64,000 bases of DNA from Apostichopus japonicus (lineage: Eukaryota > Echinodermata > Holothuroidea > Aspidochirotida > Stichopodidae). Shown here in pieces: positions 11,971 to 61,365 of this stretch (positions are counted from its first letter, which is position 1; every line of letters starts with the position of its first letter). The stretch lies in assembly GCF_037975245.1 (NCBI RefSeq), contig NC_092577.1, positions 33,676,898-33,740,897 on the forward strand, in the 5' to 3' direction. The notes beneath the pieces were generated by a model. It was not told the DNA's origin. It worked only from the letters and a program-made list of their open reading frames with translations, and searched no databases. Position numbers and translations under genes: made by a program.

Positions 11971-14900
11971 CATGTACAATATTAACAACCAACATTACTG
12001 AAACATAATTTATGGTGTTCCTAATGGCTTATGCTCTCCAATGTTTACAAACACCCACTGTCTAAATGCCTCGTAAAACAAGTAAGGCATCTGTGACTTG
12101 GGTACGGTGTGTCATGACCAATGATAAATTATGTATGTATGTATGTATGTCTGTTTGTCTATGTTATATATATATATAGGCCAATGTATGTGAGTGTCTG
12201 GATTTAATGAGAACACTATTAGAAGTTTTGTGACGTAAGTTCATTACATCTATCTTATCAGTGTAGAATGTGACAGATATACGACACAATGTGGATATAT
12301 TATCCATGTTTTTAGGATAATGTGATGTGATTTAGATTACGTACAAATATTATAGCAATATTATTACTACATGTGTCACTATCTTCAGCAAGTATGAACT
12401 TTAAAGAAACCACAACTGGGCAAACATAGAGAGCATAACATTTCGTTTTTTTTCTTCAAATATTCATTAATTTGATTGTCAAACATATCCAGTACCGTGC
12501 ACCTCGTTAAGTTCCGGTTCTGACCAAGTTGATGCGTGATATCTGTGAACACCCCCCCCCCCTTCTCCCTTAAAAAAATACCTGGCCTTTCTGTGGCCCG
12601 GTCGGAGTAAGCCTGTGCTTGATACAGAGATGAGCTAAATCTCAATATTCTGTCTCTCTGGAAAGCAGAGCCGTATATGGGACCGAGGACCTCCTCACTT
12701 ATTTACAGGCTGATATACCGAAGCTGCAACGTGGTGCAATGATCATTATTTGCCCGTGGCCCAAAGCTATATTAGTCCGGTCCTGGCGTTATTGTGTTTG
12801 AATACTATGATAAAAGACCATAAACTAAGCTACATAGCCTATTGTACGAAAAGATGGATTGTTAAAGGGGATTTACATATCTTTAATAATCGTTAGTTAC
12901 ATGTGGTAGTTACACAGTATGCGAGATGCCAGAATGCTTCAATTATGTTAAACCTGTTAGTTCTTGTGTTCAAAATCTAAATGGTAGCATGTTTGGAAAT
13001 GGCTAAGTGTTATGATAGACCAAACAATCTGTTGCTTATGGTGGGTATAGGACATATGGTGCACGGGTATAGGATATAGGACATTCGAAAACGTCTGTCA
13101 CTGCCTATAGCTGAATCACTTCAAAATAAATGACGAATTTCGTGGGTAATTAGTGAATAGAGCAATTAACTATGTTACGTGCGAAAACCTTTTATGTGGA
13201 TATATTTTATAGTGACTATGTTTGGAACACAACCAACTACTTTAAGTTGGAAGTAGGAGCGTTTAGGCTGATGAGATCGGTGCATGAAGAAAGAAAGATT
13301 TTATAGATCTGTTGGAAAAAAAGTAAGGAAAAAGACACACACATTGCGTATGAATAACGGCGTCTGTCTTATATATGGTCTATTAGGCTAATGAGTGTCG
13401 AGGGAAACATATCGTTTAAACAAACAGTGTCTCTCGGTTCGTAATTTTGACGCAGATATGCTTCGTAGAACTTGACAAAATACAGTTGTATTGACAGCAT
13501 GGGGCATAATTAATAACTGTGGCAATGTTTATAACGGGTTGAACTATAATGAAGAGACGGAGAGACAGACATACAGACAGACAGAGAGAGAGAGAGGGGG
13601 AGAAAAAGGCACATTACTTTATGAAATGAAAAGAAAATAATGACAAATAATTGTTTATAAACTTACAATAAATCAAATGAGTTTTTTTTGCGCCTGAAAA
13701 TGTTCAAAGGAATATTCCTGTAACAGACAATGTGTGTAATAGTTGTGTGTATGTAGCATTATGGAAACAAATTTTTTATTCCACACTACAATAGTAGAAG
13801 CTGTAGTTGATAGTATACGTTGTTTGTTAGAACCACACGTCATTCTGACGTAGCCTAAACCATATAATTATAATATTTCACACATTTTTAAGGGTTTAAA
13901 GGATGACTGTATATATGTGGTACATAATTAATATTGATATGTCGTATACTGAGCATAAACAAAAATACTACCACAAGTCCAAACTTTATTTCTAAGTGTA
14001 TTATATACATAGTGCATATATACTTTAGTGTATCAACACTTTTTATTTATCTATTTTTGTTGAGAAATGACCCTTGAAACAGCCGCGCGTCCTGCATTAA
14101 GGTGACTGTACTGTTTGGAATTATCACACTGTTCCTCAGATGCAACACAAACCCCAATAGACTTCTATGACATTTATTGACATGTTTACAAAAAAAGTAC
14201 AAATTTGCCACGTACAGAAATTCACTCAAGGGTCCTCCATTGTTTATGTGAAGTCCAAAGACATGTTTAGATTTCAGTTATTAGAATTTATCAAAGATTG
14301 GATTAACATTAACTTTAACATTTAAGCCTGCACAGAGGAGCTGACATTATCATCAGTCTAAGCCTTAAAGGAGCAATCCAGAGATTTAACATAATTTAAA
14401 GGTGAATACATTGAAGACCTCTTCGATTTAAAAACAATGTTTGTATTCCTTATTTTCTTTCCTCTTGGACAATATGACATCTAATGATAAACAATCTGCC
14501 TAAAGCCATCGTTTAAGTAAGAAACATGTGTGGATAAAACGATGCAGTTGCTCCGAATAAGGGATGTATTACAAAACTTGGAGAGGGTGCTTTATTAAAC
14601 ACATCAGTCGAAAAATTTAACCAAAAATAAATAAATAAATAAAAAAATTCTTCGGAAGGGGTCACGTGTCTATGAAGAAACATATTTTACGACAAATCTC
14701 GATTCGAAGAAAAGAAGAAGTAATTTTCATTGGTAAATGAATATGATGAAATTGTGATTTTATAGACAAAAAATGTCATTTGAGACGGTATTATCAAGTA
14801 TCAAATTATTATTATTCTTTTCATATGCTAAATCAACCACTCAAATTTCAGGAAATATTTCACACAATTTTAAAACTTTGTACCCCTTTTTTTGTAATTC

Positions 14901-15407
14901 TGACGTGAGAGGAATTTTAAATTTATATACAAAATGTATATTGTTCTGATCTTAATTTATCAACAGACCAACTCCGTTTCGATGATGTTAATTTCCTTTG
15001 TAATCATGAATTTGCGATTGAAATGAACAACAAAGCCATTAAAAATAAACATCATTATAAACCCATTCACACAGAATACAGAAAAACCAATTAGTAAAAA
15101 TCATCTACTAAAGCATTGACGAAAAAGCGAACACAGAACTCGAGACAACCAAAAAACACAAAAAAAGGCGTGTTTTTGCTTTTTATTAAGAAAATGAAAA
15201 AGACAGTTAGCAGACGAACGATTCTTTGAAAGGACAATTCACCTTCAAGCGTTGTTAATAAACCCATTTGAATTCTCTCGGCGTACAGCACAGAATTAGA
15301 CGCCTGCACATCCACAAGTGTGTACATATGCCACGACCGGAGAACGCCGGAATAAAACATCTTTTAGTAGAGCTAGTCTACGAAAAAAGGGGTGGTTTTT
15401 ATATATC
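11971..15407. other. No gene recognised
   Basis: AT-rich sequence with short tracts: (TATG)n near 12130, a C run near 12550, GA-rich 13550-13605 and (AAAT)n near 14620. A possible decayed hAT end (tagtccggtcctg) is at about 12772-12784. Nothing supports a gene. Confidence 0.5.
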
Positions 15408-15431
15408 TGACGTCAGTGTTGCTATAGCAAC
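15408..15431. promoter_or_regulatory. CRE plus palindromic X-box (RFX-type) composite
   Basis: A perfect CRE palindrome TGACGTCA (15408-15415) is followed after 2 bp by GTTGCTATAGCAAC (15418-15431), a full palindromic X-box matching RFX binding-site architecture (GTTGCN-spacer-NGCAAC). Read on the - strand the order is X-box then CRE with 2 bp between, similar to the X1-X2 arrangement of MHC class II-type promoters. No recognised gene starts nearby, so the function is inference. Confidence 0.45.
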
Positions 15432-16110
15432 AGAGTGTCTGTGCAGAGAGATAGAGCGAGCGAGAGACAAATCCAATGTTGTATTCCTGCTAGTTACTCG
15501 TGATTATAATACAATGTGTCGTGCTTCAATAACGCAAGTCCACAAACGAAGATAACATAGTAATTTTGCACAAACAACAGAAAAAAACCAAAAGCAAAGA
15601 AAGAAAGAAAAAAAAAACCGTTATTTTTTAGGTAACAAAAATCACGTATCGTTTAATAAGGCTTGCAGTACGTGCTGTTGAACGGTTTCATCCAGTGTTA
15701 TGCTACTTAACGATGGTGCATAAACAAATATTTAACGAAATAGACCTTACAAAATGAGTGTTTAGAAAATCCATTTCTCCTTTTTCTCGTTGACGAAATC
15801 TGATGTGTTTAAGCAGTTAGAAAAACGAGTTAAATTCCCGATCAGATGATCGTTCATATCAAGAAGACAATACAACGGTAATAAGGCTGATGTACGCTAC
15901 AGTGCATTTATATCTTGTTGTATAGTATACTTTATTTTCAGTTCTCTGAAAATCTGTATCATGCATGAACAAAATTTGTTTTTCTTGTTATTGTTGGACT
16001 TGTATATTTAAACACAAAATAGATAAATATTGCACCTTTTTATGGTTACGCATCGTAGATTCTTCATATTTTCGTTACTTTCATGGTTATCTTTCAACCA
16101 GATTTCTTAA
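15432..16110. other. No gene recognised
   Basis: AT-rich sequence with A-rich 15580-15620; small open frames without recognisable protein. Confidence 0.5.
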
Positions 16111-16242
16111 GTGGGTCGTATACGGTCCAGCTGTTTCAATCGTTGCTTATAGATTAAACAAAATATACCAATGTAACTTATAAATATTGAAAGAATTAAA
16201 ATTGGGCATACGTCCACATGTTTCCAAAGAAATGAAATCTAT
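16111..16242. repeat. Left direct repeat flanking the twin palindromes
   Basis: About 130 bp (acggtccagctgtttca ... aaagaaatgaaatct) that recurs in the same orientation at 16917-17046 with scattered substitutions. The two copies bracket a roughly 675-bp insert containing both palindromes. Confidence 0.85.
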
Positions 16243-16335
16243 ATATATATATATATATATTATATATTATTAGAGAAAACCAGAGAAATAAGATATGACT
16301 CATAATTGACAAATAAGGAGTAAGTTTTACAAAAT

Positions 16336-16378
16336 ATATTGGAATTTTCGGTCCCCCTGGGACCTTCGTCAGCAATAC
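16336..16378 (-). ncRNA. Mirror copy of the hammerhead-like core in the left arm
   Basis: It is identical by palindromic symmetry about 16406 to the + strand copy at 16434-16476, so either transcription direction yields the same candidate ribozyme. Confidence 0.5.
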
Positions 16379-16433
16379 TTGGCAGTCGAATGAGAAGTAC
16401 AAAATGATTTTGTACTTCTCATTCGACTGCCAA

Positions 16434-16476
16434 GTATTGCTGACGAAGGTCCCAGGGGGACCGAAAATTCCAATAT
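16434..16476 (+). ncRNA. Hammerhead-ribozyme-like core, zero-loop stem III (dimer type)
   Basis: The order of parts fits a type I hammerhead. Stem I 5' strand GUAUUG (16434-16439); core CUGACGA (16440-16446); one extra A (16447); stem II GGUCCC/GGGACC with loop AGG (16448-16462); GAA plus A15.1 (16463-16466); AAUU as a two-pair stem III with no loop (16466-16469); C17 at 16470; stem I 3' strand CAAUAU (16471-16476), which pairs with GUAUUG including one G-U. Predicted cleavage is between 16470 and 16471 (UUC|C). Stem III cannot close in one molecule but the self-complementary AAUU could pair between two molecules, as known for hammerheads with very short stem III. The extra A at position 10.1 departs from the canonical core, so activity is uncertain. 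The mirror copy is on the - strand at 16336-16378. Confidence 0.5.
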
Positions 16477-16689
16477 ATTTTGTAAAACTTACTCCTTATT
16501 TGTCAATTATGAGTCATATCTTATTTCTCTGGTTTTCTCTAATAATATTTTCTTTTGGAGTAAACGTGGATTTTCGTTATATTATATATTATATATATAT
16601 ATATACACATATATATATACACACATATATATATATCTATATATATATATATATATGTTGATACTAGATGAGACTAGTGGAACACTAGT

Positions 16690-16735
16690 AGTTGTTACTC
16701 GGAGTTTCACGCGTTATAGCGATCTTCAGACAACT
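16690..16735 (-). ncRNA. Mirror copy of the type I hammerhead candidate
   Basis: Exact reverse-complement copy of 16740-16785 in the left palindrome arm. The two ribozymes are head to head, their 5' ends separated by 4 nt. Confidence 0.65.
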
Positions 16736-16739
16736 TCAG

Positions 16740-16785
16740 AGTTGTCTGAAGATCGCTATAACGCGTGAAACTCCGAGTAACAACT
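16740..16785 (+). ncRNA. Type I hammerhead ribozyme candidate with minimal stem III
   Basis: All conserved positions are present. Stem I AGUUGU (16740-16745) pairs perfectly with ACAACU (16780-16785). Core CUGAAGA is 16746-16752. Stem II is C-G, G-C, C-G (16754-16756 with 16763-16765), capped by UAUAAC and preceded by a U-U opposition at 10.1/11.1. GAA plus A15.1 are 16767-16770. Stem III is A-U, C-G, U-A with loop CCG (16770-16778). H17 is A at 16779, so predicted cleavage is GUA|ACAAC between 16779 and 16780. Type I hammerheads with a 1-3 bp stem III are known from Penelope-like retroelements and retrozymes. The weak point is the U-U step at the base of stem II. A mirror copy lies in the left arm. 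Confidence 0.65.
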
Positions 16786-16916
16786 ACTAGTGTTCCACTA
16801 GTCTCATCTATTATCAACATATATTACGCTCTGTCCAATGGACATAGAGCACTCTGCGCCAAGATAGACGCCAACCTACTCTCTCTATATATATATATAT
16901 ATATAATAACACATTT

Positions 16917-17046
16917 CAGTGGTCGTAAACGGTCCAGCTGTTTCAGTTGTTGTTACAGATTAAACAAAATAAACTAATATAACTTATACATATTCAAGGA
17001 CTTAAAATTGGGTTCGTTCATGGGTTGCTAAAGAAATGAAATCTCA
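16917..17046. repeat. Right direct repeat flanking the twin palindromes
   Basis: Partner of 16111-16242 (acggtccagctgtttca ... aaagaaatgaaatct), diverged by roughly one base in six or seven by eye. Confidence 0.85.
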
Positions 17047-17272
17047 AGAAAGGGGGAGAAAGCACCTCTATATATGGTGTTGTACTTTTCAACTGTACCC
17101 AAGATTGATATGATGGTTGAGAGGTAAGCTGGTTTTCATCGTTACCGCACTAAATATACGCCGATAAGAATGTAGGCCTACCATAGATGGTTAAAAGGTA
17201 AAGATTCAAATAATATCTTTTGAATGTGGAAAGAGATGTGAAAACTTGGTGATTTCTGACAGTACAACAAAA

Positions 17273-17512
17273 TTTACGCTACATATGAAAACAATACTGC
17301 ATATAAAAACTAACAATACATATAAAAACTAACACTACAAATAAAAACTTACACACTACATATAAAACTAACACTACATATATCAACACGTACGCTACAT
17401 TTTAAAAACTAACACTGCATATACAAACTAACGTTACACATTAAAACTTGCACTACATGTAAAAACTAACACTATATATTAAAACTAACACTACACATAT
17501 AAGATCTTACAG
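17273..17512. repeat. About 20-bp minisatellite (ACTAACACTACATATAAAAA type)
   Basis: Roughly a dozen degenerate copies with unit close to aaactaacactacatataa. Divergence between units indicates an old array. Confidence 0.85.
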
Positions 17513-18040
17513 TATAGGAAGTTACAGTGTTATGCAGTGTATTTATGTATAGTGCAAGTGCTTATCAGTAGTGTTAGTTCCCCCCCCCCCCCGAAAAAAA
17601 ATCCGCTTAATGTATAGTGAATTTTCTCTTATACCAAAAATATATAATTTTGGGATTGTTTAAGTTTGTAGCATCTTTCACAATTTGTACATCTGTCTAC
17701 AGTAAATGTTATCAAAACAGTTATTGAAAGCAACAGAAGGGGAGAAATGTTTCGCAATATTTAAACTACTATAACATATCGCTAGATTTCCATATGCAAA
17801 GTGGTTTCACTGTTACCGTATTATTCCACAACGTATATGCATACCAATAATCTACGCATTCATGTGCGAGAATAAATTTGGTATACCGTGTAGCAGCCGT
17901 AATGTTGTTTCTTAATTGAAAAAAAAATAGTACACACGTAACCAATTGCTTTTTAAACAATTACGTTAACGGCCTTCCATGTCAATTTAATATAGGTGTG
18001 GTTGATGTAAAAAACGGATGCCGTTATTGAGTGACTCGGT

Positions 18041-18175
18041 CTTTATAAATGACTCAGTGACGGTGAGTTCACGCTCTCCTGACTAACTCTCTGACCAGCA
18101 GTGGTGATATTGACGTCACTGTGACGTAACGCTGACGGAAGGCACGCTCTCGAAGCAATAATTTTGTTTTACCAG
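18041..18175 (+). promoter_or_regulatory. Possible promoter and non-coding first exon
   Basis: Within 135 bp there is a TATA-like TTTATAAA (18042-18049), an AP-1 site TGACTCA (18050-18056), a perfect CRE TGACGTCA (18111-18118), a half-variant TGACGTAA (18122-18129) and a donor-like accag|gtaggt at 18175. The density is suggestive, but no + strand gene immediately downstream was recognised. Confidence 0.2.
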
Positions 18176-19639
18176 GTAGGTTATATCATGTTTAAAACCT
18201 TTGTCATCCACATATCCTTATTCTGTGATGACCATGAATGTTGTGTCCTGACACACGTGTGTTATATTTATAAGTTGTAAACTCGCATCTCGGAAATGTT
18301 TGCAAAAACCATTTGGTGTGAACCGTGTGATTGTCAATACGACATTGATAGCGATAAAGGAATAGACCCAACATAAATAAATAATGGAGCTTAGAAAAGA
18401 AACGTTTAGTCTACTGCAATATGAGACGACTTTTGCAGTCGTGCATTAGCGGTGAGGTTGATTTCTTTATATTTATGTACTAACACAAATAATGCGATGA
18501 CCGTGCAGTGCAATTCACTATATAGGGTTGGACAAATTTGATGAAAAAACCGTGAAAAGTCCTTAATAAATGTACCTTAAATTTAAGACCAGGATTATTT
18601 TTCAGAGCATGAATAAGAGATAGAGAGAGACTGATGTATATTATGAAAGAAATAAATAAATAAACGCTTTTATACGAAAATATAAATATGTGTTAAGGTA
18701 ACGTTTTATAAGTTATTAATAATAACAAAAATGTATATATATTTAAAGTATTGATTTATTAAAGGCTTAAATCTCATATTTTTAAAAAGAACATTTTATT
18801 CCACACATTCCTGAAAAAATTATTTCGCAGTTTCGTCTATTTATAACTTCCCCCATTTTTTTTCCACAGTGGAAGTTTCCCTCCCGTCTTATAGTATTGA
18901 AAAGACTAACGTCATTATCCATGTATAGGCTATACATGAAGTTAATGGAACAGAAAAACGCGCCTTTCTTACGACGCAAGCAAGTCAAATCTATGTTCAG
19001 GAAGTGTAACTCCCTCGGGGAATTCATGTTTTTCTTTTAACGTGCTGTCGACTGTATGATAGAGAAGGACCTTTTTTTCTTTGAATGTGTGTTAACGACA
19101 TTGGCCTCCGTTGTACACAGACACGCGAACGGTAGTTCTTGATACGGAGGCGTAGAGATTGCCTAACAATTTCATTTTATTTGATTTCTCCATATATTAT
19201 CTTTTCGAAATATATCGAGGAGGCGAGGAATATATTGATTTTATGATAGATCAGTATCTATTACAAACTGTCTGTTGATAATAAAAAAAATGGGAATAAA
19301 AAAGAAGAGAATATATACTATACATCACAGCTTGCTTCTGAAGTATAGAACTGTTTTCACGTATAGTAAAAGTACTGTAAAATGTGCTTAGGCTATGTCA
19401 ATACTGTGTCATATTGAGTGAAAGGTTTGTTCACATCTTCACAGACATCAGCAAACACACATCAGTGTAAGCCTATCTGTTGTTATAGCCTATCGTTATT
19501 TCATTCATACACTGTTATGTAACAAGGATTAAGTAAATGAATTATTTGTATAGCTAGATACCATTGCTAATGAGTGTTGTCTACACGAGACAGTTATCTT
19601 TTCTAACGTACAGTGGTTTAGTGATTTAAAACTGATTTT

Positions 19640-19905
19640 CGTTCGCATCGTGCTAAAATTCTTCGTTCGCATGGTGGTAAAATTTATTCGTTCGCATGGT
19701 GTTAACATAATTCATTCGCAAGGTGGTAACATATTTTTCATTCGCATGGTGTTAACATAATTCATTTGCATGGTGGTAACACATTTTTCATTCGCATGGT
19801 GTTAACATAGTGGTAACATATTTTTCATTTGCATTGTGGTATCATATTTTGTGATTCGCATGGGTGTTAACATACTCTAGTTTAGTCGTATGGTGCTAAC
19901 AAAAG
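19640..19905. repeat. About 29-bp minisatellite (TTCATTCGCATGGTGNTAACATA)
   Basis: Around eight imperfect copies alternating gtggtaacatattttt and gtgttaacataa, centred on tcgcatggtg. Confidence 0.85.
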
Positions 19906-22150
19906 TGATTTCGATTGTCATTGTTGTTGCTATATTGAACCTATTTGTGATGTTGTTACTGTGTTTTGTTGTTGATGTTGATTCTGTTTTTGTTGATGGC
20001 TTTGACGTCACCGCCGTTGTTATTTCTGACTTGCTCTTGCTAACAAAATAGTTATATGCCACGGTCCCCCATAGAGGAACAGTAACCAAAACAACAACAA
20101 CAACAACTAATACCAAAAAGGAATAATAAAAAAAAAACAATATTGCGTAATACAAATTCTGTATTCAATCATTCCACACGTACGAAAAAGGATAACAGTA
20201 AATAACAATTAATAAAGGGCACAATATAAAAATTCTCCCATATACAAGATAATGGCGACTAATATGTGAGGTTATCAAAACGAAATGCAATCTAATGTTA
20301 ATCGTTCTATAAATATGAAAATCTTCAAAATGTGAAATCAAAACTACATATATTTTCCTGCTATATAGATTCAACAAAATAGTTTACTTTTGATGTTATT
20401 GCGTACACTGTTTCGCAATACCTTTGAACTAGGCCACAAATAATAGATGAAGTCTTTACAGGCAAGTGTTCATATCATATCAAACGACACCATTCTATGC
20501 AATGCCTTAGTGCAATTGGAAGCTGTAAAGCAGTACGTACTATTTAAATTTAATATGAAATGCATTTTTTTGGGGCCTTTTATTTCGTAAAATCGTAATT
20601 CATGAGAAATTTTACCCAACCTTCTTCGAAACGGATTGGCAAATAAACTTGCCTAAACCAACTATATTGAATGATCTGCATTCACATGTCGTGTAAAAAA
20701 AAAATGGATTCAAAATTTCAACCGAAATTCAGGCAGGAAAGCTGCTTTAACTCTGTGGCTCGCCAAATGATTGTGCGACGCATTGACTCAGAATTAAAAA
20801 TATTATCAATAAATATTATCATTTTCATTTAAAACTCAATATGTTGCTTTCAAGAAAATTGTATCCATTGTAGACAAAAAAATCAAGTAGAAGTAGGTCT
20901 TGAGGTCTTGAGATCTTGAGATCTAAGGACGTAAAATTAACTTCAAGCGCATAAATCCATAGCATCGTTGGCTTGTATGACAGAGATCTTTGTCAAGAAA
21001 AACTCCACCAAAAACATCCCAGAATTATTTTTTTTCGGTTTAAGATATATATAGCTTTAATTGTCATATAATGTGAGCTGTCACTTTGAATTTCTGATGT
21101 TCCACTAGTATTTTAAACCGTTTGCTTTTTCTTTGTTTTCTCTTGACACATTTTCAAAGTAGAATATTTTCAATGATGTCATTGAAACCAATGCCATTAT
21201 AAGGTCATGTTCAAAGAAGTTCCAACATTTTAGATTCAGCATTTAAAAAGTCCGCAAAATCCGTCTTTTTTACGGAAAATATCCATCCATGATTGTTATC
21301 TATCTAGGTAAAGGAAACATAACACATTGAAGCACTTGTGGCTCGATGATGTATTATTTGCCTGGTGTGTATCATGAAACGTTAAAAATCTGAAACATCT
21401 CCTAAACGGAATTAGATCTTTGCTTGACTGTTTGGGGAAAATGTTTATGACGGCAATCTCTATCACATAGAGCAATATTTGATGGTTAAATTTGGTAAGG
21501 ATCTAATTAAATGATTACGTTCATACTTTTTACCGTTTATAATGTTTTCGTTTGTTGATAATATTTGAAACTACTTTAATCTGTTTTTAAGGCAAGTCAG
21601 GCTATCGCCCTTATAAATACTCTGAAAACAACTCATCCATAAACACACTCCAAAATAAAAAATAAATAAAAAACAATTGAAAAATTAATAACAATAGTTT
21701 AATGATAATTCCCATACACCTACAAAAATGATAATTTTTTTTTAATCAAACATTTTGTTTTTTTTATAAAAAATGACATAAAGAAATCTTCACCGACTGT
21801 TAAGACCCAATCAGTAAGGATTATTTATCAAATAAGATTGTACTTAAGAACAAGAGCAACTTTATAATTACCATATTTAGTTAATATTTTAATAAAGGAA
21901 AATTAAGGGGAAAAATGATTCATAACTAATTAATTCTAGAAAATGCTTGTCACAACATATACTCAAAACTTTAAAAAAAAAAGTTATAGCCTAGAGGAGG
22001 ATTAAATCGTTTTTCAATCATCTCAAATTTAATATAAATCATTTTGAAAGAAATGGGGGGAAACATATGAGCTACAGATCGTTCGGGTTTAAAAAAAAAA
22101 AACGTTTTTTTTAAATTTAACTTTTTTTAAATTAATTATTAAAATATTAT
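19906..22150. other. Downstream of the TASK gene; no other gene recognised
   Basis: AT-rich region with (AAC)n at 20086-20106 and A/T runs. It lies 3' of the - strand potassium-channel gene and should include its 3' UTR; a polyadenylation site could not be assigned. Confidence 0.5.
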
Positions 22151-32020
<9,870 letters not shown>

Positions 32021-38895: not shown

Positions 38896-40267
38896 CAGGG
38901 CCGGATTTACCAATGGGCAACGTGGGCAGCTGCCCACGGGCCTCCACAACAAGGGGCCTCCACATACTTTATGAAAATATATATATATAAGGGAAATTTG
39001 AAGAAAAAAAATTAAATGTAGGCTGACAAATATCATCAATCAAAATCACATTGCGCGCGGGTTACGCCATGCATACGCTTGAAGTCATATTCAATTTTAA
39101 TTGTATCTCTTTGTGAATGGTAGAAACAGCTAAGTGGTTGTTTTACCGTTATTGCAAATCACACGTCGGCAGACAAACACGATTGGCCTAATATCCGAAG
39201 TCATCAATCTCAACGTCTATTTTCTTTAGAACTAGGTTAATGGTTTTGATTGAAACATTTCAGTACACCCTGACAGTGCGCCTGTCATCACCTCCCTCTA
39301 GATTTCAGACAGGTATTGCTAATTGATTCTTTTCATGTGCAATGATGAAACAACTGTCTTCTCGCCCCCTCTACACACACATACACAGGCCCGTGCGCGT
39401 CTGGGCAGTTGGCATTAACATGTTCGTCAAGAATCATGTTAGTCCAGTCCAGCTAAAAGCAAGTTTAGTTTCGGTTTCTTGCGTTAACTGGAAACACTGG
39501 ACTGTAATGAAATCGAAGCAGCTGCAGCAAAATTAGTTTCTGAGTACAAGGATGATCTAGATCAATCACTTGGTGTTGAACTTGTGCAGTTTGCAGCCTT
39601 CTTTACTCATTTTCCTGAAGATGATAAGATGGGGAGAGAACAGTTCCTTTATAAACTGTTGATGGACAAACACGTTGCGGATACATTTCCAAATGTCGAG
39701 ATAATGCTACGGATGTACTTGGTGCTCATGGTCACAAACTGTTCTGGAGAACGTTCGTTCAGTAAACTGAAGTTCATTAAGAACAGACTCCGTACTGCAA
39801 TGGGTCATGATAGGCTCAGTCATCTGACCTTGATGAGTATTGAATATGACATTCTCAGAGATCTGACTTCGACAAATTGATCCAAGATTTTGCAAGGGTC
39901 AAGTCTCGAAAACTGCCTGGTCTGTAAATATACGTACTGTAAGTATTATATCCATGTTTATATGATTGATCATGATTGCTCGTTCGTACTGAGAGTGAGA
40001 GAGGTTGTAGCAACCTTTTTACTTGTACTGAAAATTTTGCAGGCAAACAGGCCTACATATACCGTAATGAAAATTCTTCAGAAATCACAAAATTTACTTC
40101 AGAAATCACAAAATACTGCACCATTTCGCATCCAAGAACCCTTAATTATTGGAAAAAATCCAATACCCCTCCCCTTACACACCTCCCCCAGGACGGCGAT
40201 CACTGGAGGGGGGGCCTCCACCACTGAAGGTTGCCCACGGGCCTCCACATGTCTAAATCCGGCCCTG
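38896..40267. mobile_element. hAT transposon, internally deleted, with intact ends
   Basis: Termini CAGGGCCGGATTTACC at the left and tctaaatccggccctg at the right form a 14-bp terminal inverted repeat (CAGGGCCGGATTTA). A perfect 8-bp target duplication atcctgag lies at 38888-38895 and 40268-40275. The element is 1372 bp, well short of an autonomous hAT, and keeps only the end of its transposase. Both subterminal regions carry gcccacgggcctccaca in the same orientation. Confidence 0.96.
39500..39880 (+). pseudogene. hAT transposase, C-terminal dimerisation region only
   Basis: The open frame runs through EAAAAKLVSEYKDD, VQFAAFFTHFPEDD, MYLVLMVTNCSGERSFSKLK and IKNRLRTAMGHDRLSHL, ending at tga (39878-39880). 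The NCSGERSFSKLK...KNRLR...RL motif is the hallmark of the hAT C-terminal dimerisation domain, closest in style to ZMYM-like hAT transposases. The zinc-finger and most of the catalytic region are missing. There is no start codon of its own (39584 is GTG). It is a fragment inside the deleted element. Confidence 0.9.
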
Positions 40268-47004: not shown

Positions 47005-47720
47005 ATCCATCCATCCATCCATCCATCCATCCATCCATCCATCCATCCATCCATCCATCCATCCATCCATCCATCCATCCATCCATCCATCCATCCATCC
47101 ATCCATCCATCCATCCATCCATCCATCCATCCATCCATCCATCCATCCATCCATCCATCCATCCATCCATCCATCCATCCATCCATCCATCCATCCATCC
47201 ATCCATCCATCCATCCATCCATCCATCCATCCATCCATCCATCCGTCCGTCCGTCCGTCCGTCCGTCCGTCCGTCCGTCCGTCCGTCCGTCCGTCCGTCC
47301 GTCCGTCCGTCCGTCCGTCCGTCCGTCCGTCCGTCCGTCCGTCCGTCCGTCCGTCCGTCCGTCCGTCCGTCCGTCCGTCCGTCCGTCCGTCCGTCCGTCC
47401 GTCCGTCCGTCCGTCCGTCCGTCCGTCCGTCCGTCCGTCCGTCCGTCCGTCCGTCCGTCCGTCCGTCCGTCCGTCCGTCCGTCCGTCCGTCCGTCCGTCC
47501 GTCCGTCCGTCCGTCCGTCCGTCCGTCCGTCCGTCCGTCCGTCCGTCCGTCCGTCCGTCCGTCCGTCCGTCCGTCCGTCCGTCCGTCCGTCCGTCCGTCC
47601 GTCCGTCCGTCCGTCCGTCCGTCCGTCCGTCCGTCCGTCCGTCCGTCCGTCCGTCCGTCCGTCCGTCCGTCCGTCCGTCCGTCCGTCCATCCATCTATCT
47701 ATCTATCTATCTATCTATCT
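47005..47720. repeat. Compound (ATCC)60-(GTCC)111-(ATCT)n tetranucleotide array
   Basis: ATCC occupies about 47005-47244. It switches at a single sharp boundary to GTCC (47245-47688, 444 bp, one CpG every 4 bp), then two ATCC units and a short ATCT tail. There is essentially no mixing across the boundary. Long open frames on both strands ([16 protein letters not shown]) are artefacts. Confidence 0.98.
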
Positions 47721-51094: not shown

Positions 51095-54000
51095 ATGAAT
51101 GATAGAGAGCAACATCACCCGACGTTGAGAAGTCTATTAGTTACTGGAATATTGCAGATAATTGGCGGCGCTGTACTCGCATTTAGTGCTATTGTCTTGG
51201 TTATAGTACTGTACGGTGTACCCGAAAGGAATCACCTGGATTACCCTGTCAGTGGACTGTGGTCGGGAGCTGTAAGTATCTCCACAGGGAGCTTCTTGTT
51301 AGAACGGTTGTCTTTTATAGTTTTGATACAAGTTTTCGGGTGATTTTCTTGGTTTTGATAAGTTGCCAGTGTGTTAATGTATGATGTGACTTCTGTTTAA
51401 AAAGATAATGTTCTTACATGCAGGTAATCTGTTCTTGGCTTCTTGACATAACACATCATGTTATGTGCAATTGTATATGTAGAATGTGCGCGCGCGTGAG
51501 TGTGTATGTGAGTGCGCGTTTGTTGTATTCTGACTCAGGACTTGAACGAAAGCATTCCAGGTCCTCTGGATGTTATTTCCAAAGAATTACCACGTCCTCG
51601 CAAGAATTCTGTTGTTAAGGGGTATTATTAAGGGGAAAGTACGTGGATTGGAACAATGTAAAAAAAAAACAATGGGGTCCTTGGTCTGAATGTAAAACAC
51701 AGCTGCATGGTTGTGTGTTAGGGTGTTTGCAAAGGCAAGGTTAAAAACAGAAAAACTAAAATTCTGCAATTAACTAGAAAACGAATTATTTTATATCCAT
51801 TTTTTTTCAACAGTGGACGATAATAGTTGGTTTTGTTGGGGTTCTCGCATCTTCCCGTCCAGGAGTGATGGTAAGTTTAACTAATAACCTAGAACTATCA
51901 TAAGATTGAATTGAGGGGGTAGCGATCGGGGAGGGGTACGACCGGGAGGGGTATGATCGGGGAGGGGGTACGTTCGGGGAGGGGATGATGCGGGTACGGA
52001 GGTTATCTCTTTGACCATTATGTTACTATTCTTGATGTCTAAAATTCAGTTCTGACATGGGCATAAACTAATACTGGCAATTGCAAATTCTAGCCTGCAT
52101 CTTTGATATTATAATGAAGGAAATATATGGACAAATTATAATGAACAAAACAAAAAATCACACCCCAAGTAAGTACATAAATATTTATTCCGTCAATGTC
52201 TTTAACTTGATGGATTATTTATCGATAATATATGATAAGTTAAGAAATATATTTCATGTTGCGTTTAAATAAGCTGAACTTGATCATATCCCACTGATGA
52301 CACCAAAAATAAAAGCATGTAAAAGCCTGTAACGAAATGTATGAAACATTGAACAGAAAAATGGACATTTGAAGAACAATAACAAGACACAAAAGTGGAT
52401 ATTTTACAATGATATTATCAAATTAGAATCATAAATGGGTTGTTGAGTTTGTCCGAGGTGCCCTGATGTTTCGTTGTATACCTTAACAAAATAAATAAAT
52501 AAATAAGTAAATACCATGGTAAGAATTTTCGATATTATCCTTGATCAAATTGGGTTCGGTCCTCCTGTACATCAGGCATCCCAGTCTCTGGTTCCGCCAT
52601 AGGAGTCGTTTGTCTAATTTATGTTAAACTTTTCATAAATGAATATTCATATCTATCTTGTTTTCCTTCACCCAGTTGGGACAATTATTTCTATATTGTA
52701 TAGTGTCATTTCTCTCTTCCAGAGCAGTATTGTCAGTACGAGTAGTATGAATATCATGTTTTCTATCAGGTCAAGGTTATAGGAACTGTTTGTACTGTCA
52801 ATGCCAGTGCTTTGAAGCATGATATTGGAGGACAGTTTAGAGAGGTATTGCAGCATGCGGGCTATATTACCATAAATGAATATTCATTTTTTATACTTTA
52901 TATGACTTTCAGAGAGGAGCATATATGGTACTTTCGCTGATGACTGTACCACATGTGACCGTTGCCGTCGCACTAGGTGCGGTTGCTGCGGCTTACAATG
53001 GGCATTACTACCTGCAGCATCCGGGCTATATTAACATAAATGAATATTCATTTTTAATCTTGTTTTACTTTGTTTGACTTTCAGAGAGGAGCATATATGG
53101 TACTTTCGCTGATGACAATACCACCTGTCACCGTTGCCGTCGCACTAGGTGCGGCTGCTGCGGCCAACAATGTGCATTACTACCTGCTGCATCCGGGCTA
53201 TAAGGACTATGATGTCTCAGTCGATGACGGCTATGACCGTTATAATCAACAGGTATGCTTAATCAGCTTATAAATGAATAAACATGATATGAATGTTTTA
53301 AATTAGCATATGAGTTGATTGGTAAATGTTTCGAAATTATTTTAATGAGATGACACCGTAGGTTCTAAAAACCTTTTTTGTTTGTTTGTTTTCTTCATAT
53401 TTTTAAAGTGAATTTATAAACAGTTTTGACCAAACAAATATAATGTCCGTGTTAAGAACCTCGACACGTTTATCGCTACAATGTTCAGGTATAGTTGTGT
53501 TGAAGCTTCAAGAGACACTATGAGTCATAATATGGTGTGCCAATTTCGAAAAAAATAAGATGCATCCAATAAATATATGATGAAAACGTCATAAATTAAT
53601 GATATCATGTTTTTCTTTCTTAAGTTCTATCTATTTTTGCCTCTTTTTTTTTAGCTGGGAATATCATTGACAAAAATGATCTTCCATCTATTGGTATGCT
53701 TGGTTGGTTGTTCCGAAATAACGATTGCGCTTTTGGCTTCGGCTTTCTGTTGTAATGGACTATGTCCCGGTAACACAATCAAAGAGACGAGCAACAACAA
53801 TGTAAGTACATGATTATTATTATATATGCAGCGAACTTTGACATCGTTTGTACATATTCATATTGTGACGATACTACAATGAATTGTGCCATTTACTTAT
53901 AGACTTAGACAGTCACGATCGTTAGAGGATAGATCGACGTTTTCCCAGCGACATGTGGTAAACTGACCATGCATGATAGCTACTGGCTTGGACTATATCC

Positions 54001-60087: not shown

Positions 60088-61365
60088 TTGTATAATTTTA
60101 TTTGGAACAATAAACCTTATAAGATTAAACGGAGCACCCTTATTAATAAGAAAGTTAATGGTGGCTTTGATATGATAGATATTGAATCTTTTATTAAAAG
60201 TCTAAACTGTAGCTGGGTAAAGCGGTATTTAGCCCCTCAGAGAGGAAACTGGAAAATATTTTTTGATTTATACCTAAAACAGTTCGGTGGTGCTTTTCTT
60301 TTTAAATGTAATTTCAATAAGGAGGCAGTTTCTTGTATTTCTAATATTTTTTGCAGAGAAGTGTGTGAGGCTTGGGCTGAGTTTAATTTTTATCATCCAG
60401 GCAGTAATTATGGTAATGAAATCATTTTAAACAACAGTCATATATTGGTTAACAATAAAGTAATTTTCCATTATAATCTTTTAAATCACAGAACAATTTA
60501 TGTGAAAGATTTCATTAAAAATGATGGCTCGGTAATTCCATATAACACGTTTCAAGCGAAAAAATATATTAGAAATTTTCCTTTTACTTCGTACTTTGGG
60601 ATTATTCACGCCATTCCTAGTTATTGGAGGGGGTACCATGATTCTGTTTTGCTCCCAATGAGTGAAAATAACTTTAATATGTGCATGCGCACACATAAAA
60701 TAACCAAAAATGTTTATAATAAGCTAATTACCGGTCTCTGCACGCCCCCGTCGTCTATTATGAAGTGGCAAGTTATGAATTTTCCAGTGAAAATAGTTTG
60801 GAATAAGATTTTTAGGCTGCCTTATACGGCTGTGAATGACCCCTAAGTATCATATTTACAATTGCGTTTTCTACATCGTATTTTAGGCATAAATAGCTTG
60901 CTTTATAAAATGAAAATGGTTAATTCTCCACTTTGTTCATTTTGCAAGAATGCCGATGAAACGCTTATACATTTGTTTTATAATTGTAGTCACGTTGAGC
61001 GGTTCTGGGAGGCAGTGAATTCAAATTGCATTAAAACTAATTATCCTTTTAATTTGACCAACATTTGTTTTGGTGATTTTGGTGATATAGATAATCCTGT
61101 GAACTTTTTAATTTTGCATGCTAAAAAGTACATTTATACTTGTAGGTTGGATAACAAAATCCCACATGTGCACGAATTTTATTTTAAGTTTCGCTTTCAA
61201 CTTGACCTGCACTGTTTCATTTCTAAGCAAAACAACAATTTGTGTAACCTTAACGACTTCTATGATTTCTTTATGTAAGCTTCTTATGTAAGTCTTTTTG
61301 CTGATTCTTTTGTATTATGTGTTACGATATTGTAAATAAATACAGTGGTAAAAAAAAACCAAAAA
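60088..61365 (+). mobile_element. 5'-truncated LINE (L1/Tx1-like), 3' part of ORF2
   Basis: One frame from 60088 to 61278 reads the end of an L1/Tx1-type ORF2 protein: FIWNNKPYKIKRSTLINKK, GGFDMIDIESFIKSLNCSWV, QLRFLHRILGINSLLYKMK and the Cys/His cluster LCSFCKNADETLIHLFYNCS then ERFW. The reading is broken only by a TAA at 60853-60855 region's upstream neighbour (60844-60846), with no frameshift. An A-rich tail (aaaaaaaaaccaaaaaaaaaaa) ends the copy near 61370, and an A run precedes it at 60070-60086. The endonuclease and reverse-transcriptase domains are missing. Target-site duplications were not identified. Confidence 0.88.

What the first reader, a model, noticed from the sequence alone, without database searches (positions are those of the whole stretch)
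16651..16824. Palindrome built from two head-to-head type I hammerhead ribozyme candidates
Each arm holds a 46-nt sequence fitting the hammerhead consensus: perfect 6-bp stem I, CUGAAGA, short stem II, GAAA, 3-bp stem III with CCG loop, and GUA before the predicted cleavage site (16779/16780 on +, mirrored on -). The arms are related by near-perfect inversion with only 4 nt between the ribozymes, so transcription from either strand gives a self-cleaving candidate, but a full transcript would also form an 85-bp hairpin competing with folding. Minimal-stem-III hammerheads are known from Penelope-like elements; an inverted twin arrangement is unusual and could represent inverted terminal repeats of a non-autonomous element.
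Basis: partly seen in the sequence, partly recalled or inferred. Interest (0 to 1): 0.88.

Follow-up and report, generated by a model that had tools for sequence, protein, structure and literature searches.

The report
Two adjacent palindromes with hammerhead-ribozyme motifs
In a sea-cucumber genome two neighbouring, nearly perfect DNA palindromes each carry a pair of back-to-back hammerhead-ribozyme look-alikes; they may be debris of ribozyme-bearing retroelements, and the full-length RNA would be expected to zip into a long hairpin that hides the ribozymes.

Summary
In detail: 16651-16824 is a palindrome of two 85-nt arms (1 mismatch) around a 4-nt loop, each arm holding the 46-nt hammerhead-like sequence described. 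(1) Stem II opens with a U-U mismatch; Rfam finds no hammerhead here even at E 10 and the isolated RNA rarely takes the fold. (2) A second palindrome 102 nt away, 16264-16548 (identical 142-nt arms, 1-nt loop), carries a better mirrored candidate: Rfam Hammerhead_1 is its best match, though weak (15.7 bits, cut-off 34), and stems I and II are its minimum-energy fold.

Chance gives about 5e-5 such motifs in 227 nt of arm; two are seen, but I shaped the descriptor after seeing both. Host: sea cucumber, probably Apostichopus.

Best reading: ends of hammerhead-bearing retroelements (Penelope- or retrozyme-like) joined head to head, as self-priming is thought to do in Penelope elements. No reverse transcriptase turned up in ORFs tested nearby, and the host genome could not be searched for copies. 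In full transcripts the hairpin (-150 kcal/mol) should block cleavage. A functional twin ribozyme is possible but unproven.

The parts
16651..16735 (.). P2 palindrome, left arm (85 nt)
   Evidence: 84 of 85 positions pair with the right arm
16736..16739 (.). P2 loop TCAG
16740..16824 (.). P2 palindrome, right arm (85 nt)
16740..16785 (+). P2 hammerhead-like motif (stem I 6 bp, CUGAAGA, U-U mismatch, CGC/GCG, GAAA, 3-bp stem III, GUA); predicted cleavage 16779/16780
   Evidence: no Rfam hit
16690..16735 (-). mirrored P2 hammerhead-like motif; predicted cleavage between 16696 and 16695
16264..16405 (.). P1 palindrome, left arm (142 nt)
   Evidence: 100% complementary
16406..16406 (.). P1 loop, single G
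16407..16548 (.). P1 palindrome, right arm (142 nt)
16434..16476 (+). P1 hammerhead-like motif (stem I 6 pairs with one G-U, CUGACGA, one extra A, GGUCCC/GGGACC stem II, GAAA, A-AU-U in place of stem III, C); predicted cleavage 16470/16471
   Evidence: Rfam RF00163 Hammerhead_1, model 1-45 of 45, 15.7 bits, E 0.11 in 55 bases, best of 4 matches by score and E-value; MFE fold is stems I and II of the hammerhead
16336..16378 (-). mirrored P1 hammerhead-like motif; predicted cleavage between 16342 and 16341
   Evidence: RF00163 15.7 bits, best of 5 matches
16241..16263 (.). AT-rich stretch left of P1
16578..16656 (.). (TA)n tract running into the left end of P2
16114..16240 (+). direct repeat copy A flanking the P1-P2 block
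   Evidence: 106 of 127 aligned columns identical to copy B
16921..17044 (+). direct repeat copy B

Best explanation
The locus holds two palindromes that are unrelated in sequence but alike in plan (P1 16264-16548, P2 16651-16824). Each is made of two segments with a hammerhead-like motif, joined 5' end to 5' end, next to AT-rich tracts. They are most likely remnants of ends of hammerhead-carrying non-LTR retroelements (Penelope-like pseudo-LTRs or retrozyme-like units) that became inverted head-to-head junctions by self-priming or fold-back during reverse transcription or repair. P1 has a plausible type I motif of the reduced kind without a real stem III. P2 has a weaker one with a stem III and a U-U mismatch. 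An RNA starting inside one arm could fold and cleave after C16470 (P1) or A16779 (P2). An RNA read through a whole palindrome should zip into a hairpin and not cleave, but could feed small-RNA pathways. Shown: sequence, palindromes, motif fit, computed fold energies, probable host. Inferred: retroelement origin, self-priming, cleavage, silencing.
For: Both palindromes carry the motif in the same orientation, pointing outward from the centre. In the census they are the two highest-scoring palindromes of the window; the other two listed that are not low-complexity have arms of only 25 and 20 nt. Expected hits of a descriptor admitting both: 61 in 334 Mb = 0.012 per 64 kb, and 5e-5 per 227 nt of arm with the arms' own composition (69 in 310 Mb); its only window hits are P1 and P2, each seen twice because of the mirror. 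RF00163 is the best match for P1 on both strands over the full model. Two bacterial look-alikes with TGACGAAGGTCC...GGACCGAAA got no RF00163 match; these are weak controls: one has the full core, the other has T in place of C3, and their stem II pattern is 5 pairs, not 6. P1's MFE is stems I and II of the hammerhead, ensemble probability 0.64. Penelope elements: head-to-head inverted pLTRs with palindromes at the junction, read as self-priming, and preference for AT-rich targets (PMC3846280 passages and Discussion; PMC11167929 passages and part of the main text); their hammerheads are usually minimal and lack helix III (PMC6155905 passages). A U10.1-U11.1 mismatch occurs in natural hammerheads and supports activity better than other mispairs (PMC3088659 section 8), and an axolotl class has one (PMC7229834 passage).
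Against: No RT or GIY-YIG domain in 14 of the 15 ORFs of at least 70 aa listed at 12000-22000, nor a Penelope-type one in 12 further ORFs elsewhere, one of which is the zf-RVT end of a LINE; shorter or broken frames were not covered (searches failed). P1 and P2 arms share nothing longer than 6-nt words. RF00163 scores P1 at 15.7 bits against a cut-off of 34, and P1's match was not listed in the wider 311-base scan at E up to 10. P1 has an extra A between A9 and stem II and no true stem III. P2 has no Rfam match, and its stem III is unlike the Penelope type. The descriptor was widened after P1 was seen; the looser core-plus-stem-II scan gives 3 distinct places in the window against 0.9 expected, which is not remarkable by itself. 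No other copies found: the P2 frame found no candidate and the P1 frame nothing significant among proteins; five viral-collection patterns gave 0, and of two prokaryote-collection patterns one gave 0 and one two hits in bacterial DNA. These collections are not made to hold animal DNA. The host genome was not searched.
Confidence: 0.5

Rival explanations
1. Fold-back DNA elements (palindromic MITE-like insertions in TA tracts); the hammerhead likeness of P2, and perhaps P1, is chance.
For: Two near-perfect palindromes beside TA tracts; P2 has no Rfam hit and no better fold than shuffles; a motif as good as P2 is expected 4-5 times per 800 Mb by chance. Chance conformity is expected in large databases (PMC3088659 Discussion passage).
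Against: Two independent motifs in the two palindromes exceed the expected 5e-5 per 227 nt by far (post hoc descriptor); P1 is best matched by RF00163. No TSD can be fixed in the TA-rich flanks; no further copy in the window.
Confidence: 0.28
2. Replication template switching made the palindromes: single-copy sequence (with or without a hammerhead) was copied back at a stalled fork near the TA tracts, so the second arm is a by-product and the twin has no role.
For: Arms almost identical (0 of 142 and 1 of 85 differences) while a direct repeat in the same spot has drifted to 83%; loops of 1 and 4 nt. Template switching can make novel hairpin stems in one event (PMC8794818 passages). No relatives found in the collections searched.
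Against: The longest case in the passages read is 59 bp, shorter than both arms; does not explain why both palindromes hold the motif.
Confidence: 0.2
3. A functional bidirectional self-cleaving element: each strand's transcript is cut once, giving defined RNA ends.
For: Motifs on both strands in mirrored positions; U-U mismatch and short stems occur in natural hammerheads.
Against: Full P2 + transcript: hairpin -149.8 kcal/mol against -74.0 with the hammerhead forced; the predicted fold of the growing transcript is already the hairpin when the motif is completed. P1 full hairpin -247.5. Conservation untestable here.
Confidence: 0.05

Closest known systems
Penelope-like elements with minimal type I hammerheads (Penelope, Poseidon; pLTRs)
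   Same: Reduced hammerhead lacking helix III (P1), AT-rich surroundings, head-to-head inverted units with a palindromic junction.
   Different: No RT or endonuclease found in the ORFs tested; arms of 142 and 85 nt are shorter than the roughly 180-220-bp pLTRs described; P2 has a stem III; the palindromes given there at pLTR 5' ends are 18 and 38 bp.
Metazoan non-LTR retrozymes with canonical type I hammerheads
   Same: Short, AT-rich, non-coding units with type I motifs; one axolotl class has a U-U mismatch at the base of helix II.
   Different: Retrozymes are direct tandem repeats of about 150-450 bp; here the units are inverted and no tandem array was seen.
Miniature inverted-repeat (fold-back) transposons
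   Same: Nearly complete hairpin, AT-rich target.
   Different: No TSD demonstrable, no copies found, hammerhead-like core present. (Comparison from general knowledge.)
Template-switch hairpins (PMC8794818)
   Same: Near-perfect stem, tiny loop.
   Different: Longer arms than the 59 bp mentioned; shared motif in two adjacent cases unexplained.

Membership tests
Type I hammerhead ribozyme (P2) | Invariant core C3 U4 G5 A6 N7 G8 A9, G12 A13 A14, A15.1-U16.1, H17 | tested here: met
   core list from PMC3088659 section 13
Type I hammerhead ribozyme (P2) | Pairs next to the core in all stems (10.1-11.1 included) | tested here: not met
   U-U at 10.1-11.1; such a mispair led to rejection in PMC3088659, with re-admission if activity was measured; natural U-U cases exist
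Type I hammerhead ribozyme (P2) | Match to Rfam RF00163 | tested here: not met
Type I hammerhead ribozyme (P1) | Invariant core | tested here: met
   but one extra A between A9 and stem II
Type I hammerhead ribozyme (P1) | Stem III | tested here: not met
   only A-AU-U; unpaired in the MFE; minimal Penelope hammerheads are described as lacking helix III
Type I hammerhead ribozyme (P1) | Match to Rfam RF00163 at gathering score | tested here: not met
   15.7 bits against 34, though best match by score and E-value; not listed in the 311-base scan
Type I hammerhead ribozyme (P1 and P2) | Self-cleavage at the predicted site | not testable with these tools
   needs in vitro transcription
Type I hammerhead ribozyme (P1 and P2) | Covariation of stems among copies | not testable with these tools
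   no animal genome collection; own-genome search unanswered
Penelope-like element | RT with GIY-YIG endonuclease ORF | tested here: inconclusive
   none in 14 of 15 ORFs of at least 70 aa at 12000-22000 and 12 others; frames not fully covered
Penelope-like element | Minimal hammerhead in the pLTR | tested here: inconclusive
   P1 fits the description; pLTR identity not shown
Penelope-like element | Direct or inverted pLTRs, head to head, palindromic junction | tested here: inconclusive
   architecture agrees; sequence homology to a pLTR untested
[quoted passage not shown]
   no tandem copies of P1 or P2 seen
MITE | Terminal inverted repeats with TSD and many copies | tested here: inconclusive
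   inverted arms present; TSD ambiguous in TA-rich flanks; genome copies untestable, none in the window

The most novel reading that the evidence does not exclude
Sea cucumbers carry a class of mobile palindromes built from two head-to-head hammerhead ribozymes, in which the inverted junction itself is the product of ribozyme-ended RNA being reverse-transcribed with fold-back priming. The same DNA then yields either self-cleaving RNA (from promoters inside an arm) or a silencing hairpin (read-through): a switch between mobility and silencing.
Probability: 0.12. Interest if true: 0.8.

Novelty: new variant of a known kind. Interest (0 to 1): 0.45.

Why it matters
How Penelope-like elements and animal retrozymes use their hammerheads, and why Penelope ends so often sit head to head, is open; in the one Penelope-like protein tested in vitro in PMC11167929, hammerhead cleavage was not needed for insertion (passage). 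Palindromes with a ribozyme at a fixed distance from a 1- or 4-nt turn would be frozen products of the joining step and would make the self-priming idea testable by sequence alone. If instead both are chance or template-switch products, they are a caution for motif-only ribozyme claims.

Tried and rejected
Chance alone for P2 was first favoured (U-U mismatch, no Rfam hit) but weakened when reading showed that U-U is tolerated and when P1 was found to hold a second motif. Many microRNA-precursor families scored in the Rfam E-value scans (e.g. MIR6217 84 bits, cut-off 110; MIR8562 81.3 bits, cut-off 211); rejected as a general response to long perfect hairpins, since all are below their cut-offs (0 matches at gathering). 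tRNA genes: 0 found. Searches for relatives: five viral contigs patterns gave 0; genome contigs gave 0 and then 2, both in bacterial records of 67% and 54% GC, taken as chance and used as weak controls (the second lacks C3). Protein-level search of the frame over P2 found no candidate sharing three words; of the frame over P1, one insignificant hit (E 0.68). These are weak tests: they depend on chance ORFs over copies, and no repeat of known copy number was run as a positive control. Literature, judged from titles and starts of abstracts in capped lists: none of the papers listed seemed to be about inverted twin hammerheads (15 of 18 listed, 15 of 624, 15 of 158, 12 of 39); no held paper has both 'hammerhead ribozymes' and 'Apostichopus'; one search asked for any 2 of 5 terms and listed 12 of 5,798, none with the hammerhead term. 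Text searches for the sequence motifs: 0 papers; 74 papers with 15 listed, none about repeats or ribozymes by title. Cervera and De la Pena 2014 is not held and was not read.

Full report
Host and setting. The window is animal DNA. Its potassium-channel exon (22151-22972, - strand) is 99% identical over 75% of its length to an Apostichopus japonicus protein and 83% over 96% to one of Holothuria leucospilota, so the host is a sea cucumber, probably Apostichopus (published A. japonicus assembly about 805 Mb: PMC5638244, start of abstract in the listing). Other content: Tmem26, F-box and hAT domains and the zf-RVT end of a LINE. The finding lies about 5 kb beyond the 3' end of that exon's reading frame, in AT-rich DNA.

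The observation. 16651-16824 is two 85-nt arms around TCAG, with one mismatch (16664/16811), outside the 46-nt motif. The motif is at 16740-16785 (+) and 16735-16690 (-). A descriptor scan finds it alone in the window. The strict form (stem I at least 6, stem II at least 3 with one mismatch allowed at its base, stem III at least 3) occurs 3 times in 538 Mb of simulated sequence, i.e. 3.6e-4 per window. Across 800 Mb that is 4-5 chance cases (from 3 events, so rough), and a scan of many windows would meet one.

Quality of the P2 motif. Rfam gives no hammerhead at the gathering score, none among 29 matches at E up to 10 in 341 bases, and nothing of any family in 53 bases. The isolated 46-mer prefers another fold (-6.3 against -4.0 kcal/mol), with stem III pairing below 0.01; the energy model does not know the hammerhead's tertiary contacts. 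On the other side, U10.1-U11.1 occurs in natural hammerheads and is the best tolerated mispair (PMC3088659 section 8), and an axolotl hammerhead class has a U-U mismatch there (PMC7229834 passage). The same PLoS paper rejected hits with a mispair at 10.1-11.1, taking them back if activity could be measured (section 13).

The second palindrome. 16264-16548 is a palindrome of two identical 142-nt arms around one G. In a census (loops up to 60 nt) it and P2 are the two highest-scoring palindromes of the window; the other two listed that are not low-complexity have arms of 25 and 20 nt. A relaxed core-plus-stem-II scan finds three places in the window, 13268, P1 and P2, the last two on both strands, against 0.9 expected, so that scan alone is not remarkable; for stems of 6 pairs, as in P1, 0.05 are expected. 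P1's motif, 16434-16476 (+) and 16378-16336 (-), has stem I of 6 pairs, CUGACGA, one extra A, a 6-pair stem II, GAAA, A-AU-U in place of stem III, and C. Rfam Hammerhead_1 (RF00163) is its best match on both strands, over the whole model, 15.7 bits, E 0.11 for 55 bases and all families. This is below the cut-off of 34, and the match was not listed in the wider scan of 311 bases, presumably because of filters. Scaled by me to one family and the whole window, E is about 0.03. Two bacterial look-alikes found by pattern gave no RF00163 match, but they are weak controls: both have 5-pair stem II patterns, and one has T in place of C3. P1's minimum-energy fold is stems I and II of the hammerhead, -13.4 kcal/mol, ensemble probability 0.64, z -2.0, with 7 of 200 shuffles as good.

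Chance for both. A descriptor admitting both forms gives 61 hits in 334 Mb, 0.012 per window; with the arms' own composition, 5e-5 per 227 nt of arm (69 in 310 Mb). Both palindromes carry it, in the same orientation. P1 and P2 arms otherwise share only 6-nt words.

What could make such things. Penelope elements have pseudo-LTRs in direct or head-to-head inverted order, with palindromes at the inverted junction that are read as products of self-priming, and they favour AT-rich targets (PMC3846280, passages and Discussion; PMC11167929, passages and part of the main text). Their hammerheads are usually minimal and lack helix III (PMC6155905 passages), as in P1 but not in P2. P1 and P2 match that plan: hammerhead-like units with 5' ends at the centre, next to TA-rich tracts. 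No reverse transcriptase or GIY-YIG domain was found in 14 of the 15 ORFs of at least 70 aa listed at 12000-22000, and no Penelope-type one in 12 ORFs elsewhere; shorter or broken frames were not covered, and homology to a pLTR could not be tested. A block containing both palindromes is flanked by a direct repeat (127 and 124 bp), 83% identical. If that repeat arose there, its age contrasts with the near-identity of the arms: the palindromes are younger, or are kept alike by arm-to-arm correction (inference).

Would it work? In a full transcript of either strand the complementary arm is made first. For P2 the hairpin is -149.8 kcal/mol, against -74.0 with the hammerhead forced, and when the growing + RNA reaches 16780 or 16786 its best fold is already the hairpin over the motif. 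P1's full hairpin is -247.5 kcal/mol. Cleavage is therefore expected only from RNAs that start inside an arm. Read-through RNA would be a long hairpin, a possible source of small RNAs (inference).

Limits. No animal genome collection was at hand; the own-genome search did not complete (nine calls); no covariation could be tested; an assembly artefact cannot be excluded for perfect palindromes; no activity is known.

Noticed in passing
16114-16240 and 16921-17044: Direct repeat (127 and 124 bp), 83% identical, flanking the block with both palindromes; no match was found beyond it.
   Followed up: partly
16786-16802: Just downstream of the P2 motif lies a 7-bp hairpin (ACTAGTG-TTC-CACTAGT) that folds beside the motif.
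   Followed up: no
16317-16661: A reading frame stays open from inside P1's left arm through the rest of P1 (114 codons, + strand); no Pfam match, no significant protein relative.
   Followed up: partly
914-2045: About 31 copies of a 36-bp minisatellite with long open frames on both strands.
   Followed up: no
29241-29771 and 47006-47692: Long tetranucleotide arrays (ATGG)n and (TCCG)n, 99% matches.
   Followed up: no
52849-53202: About two 172-bp tandem units, 88% matches.
   Followed up: no
39488-39880 and 60847-61278: hAT transposase dimerisation domain and zf-RVT end of a LINE.
   Followed up: no
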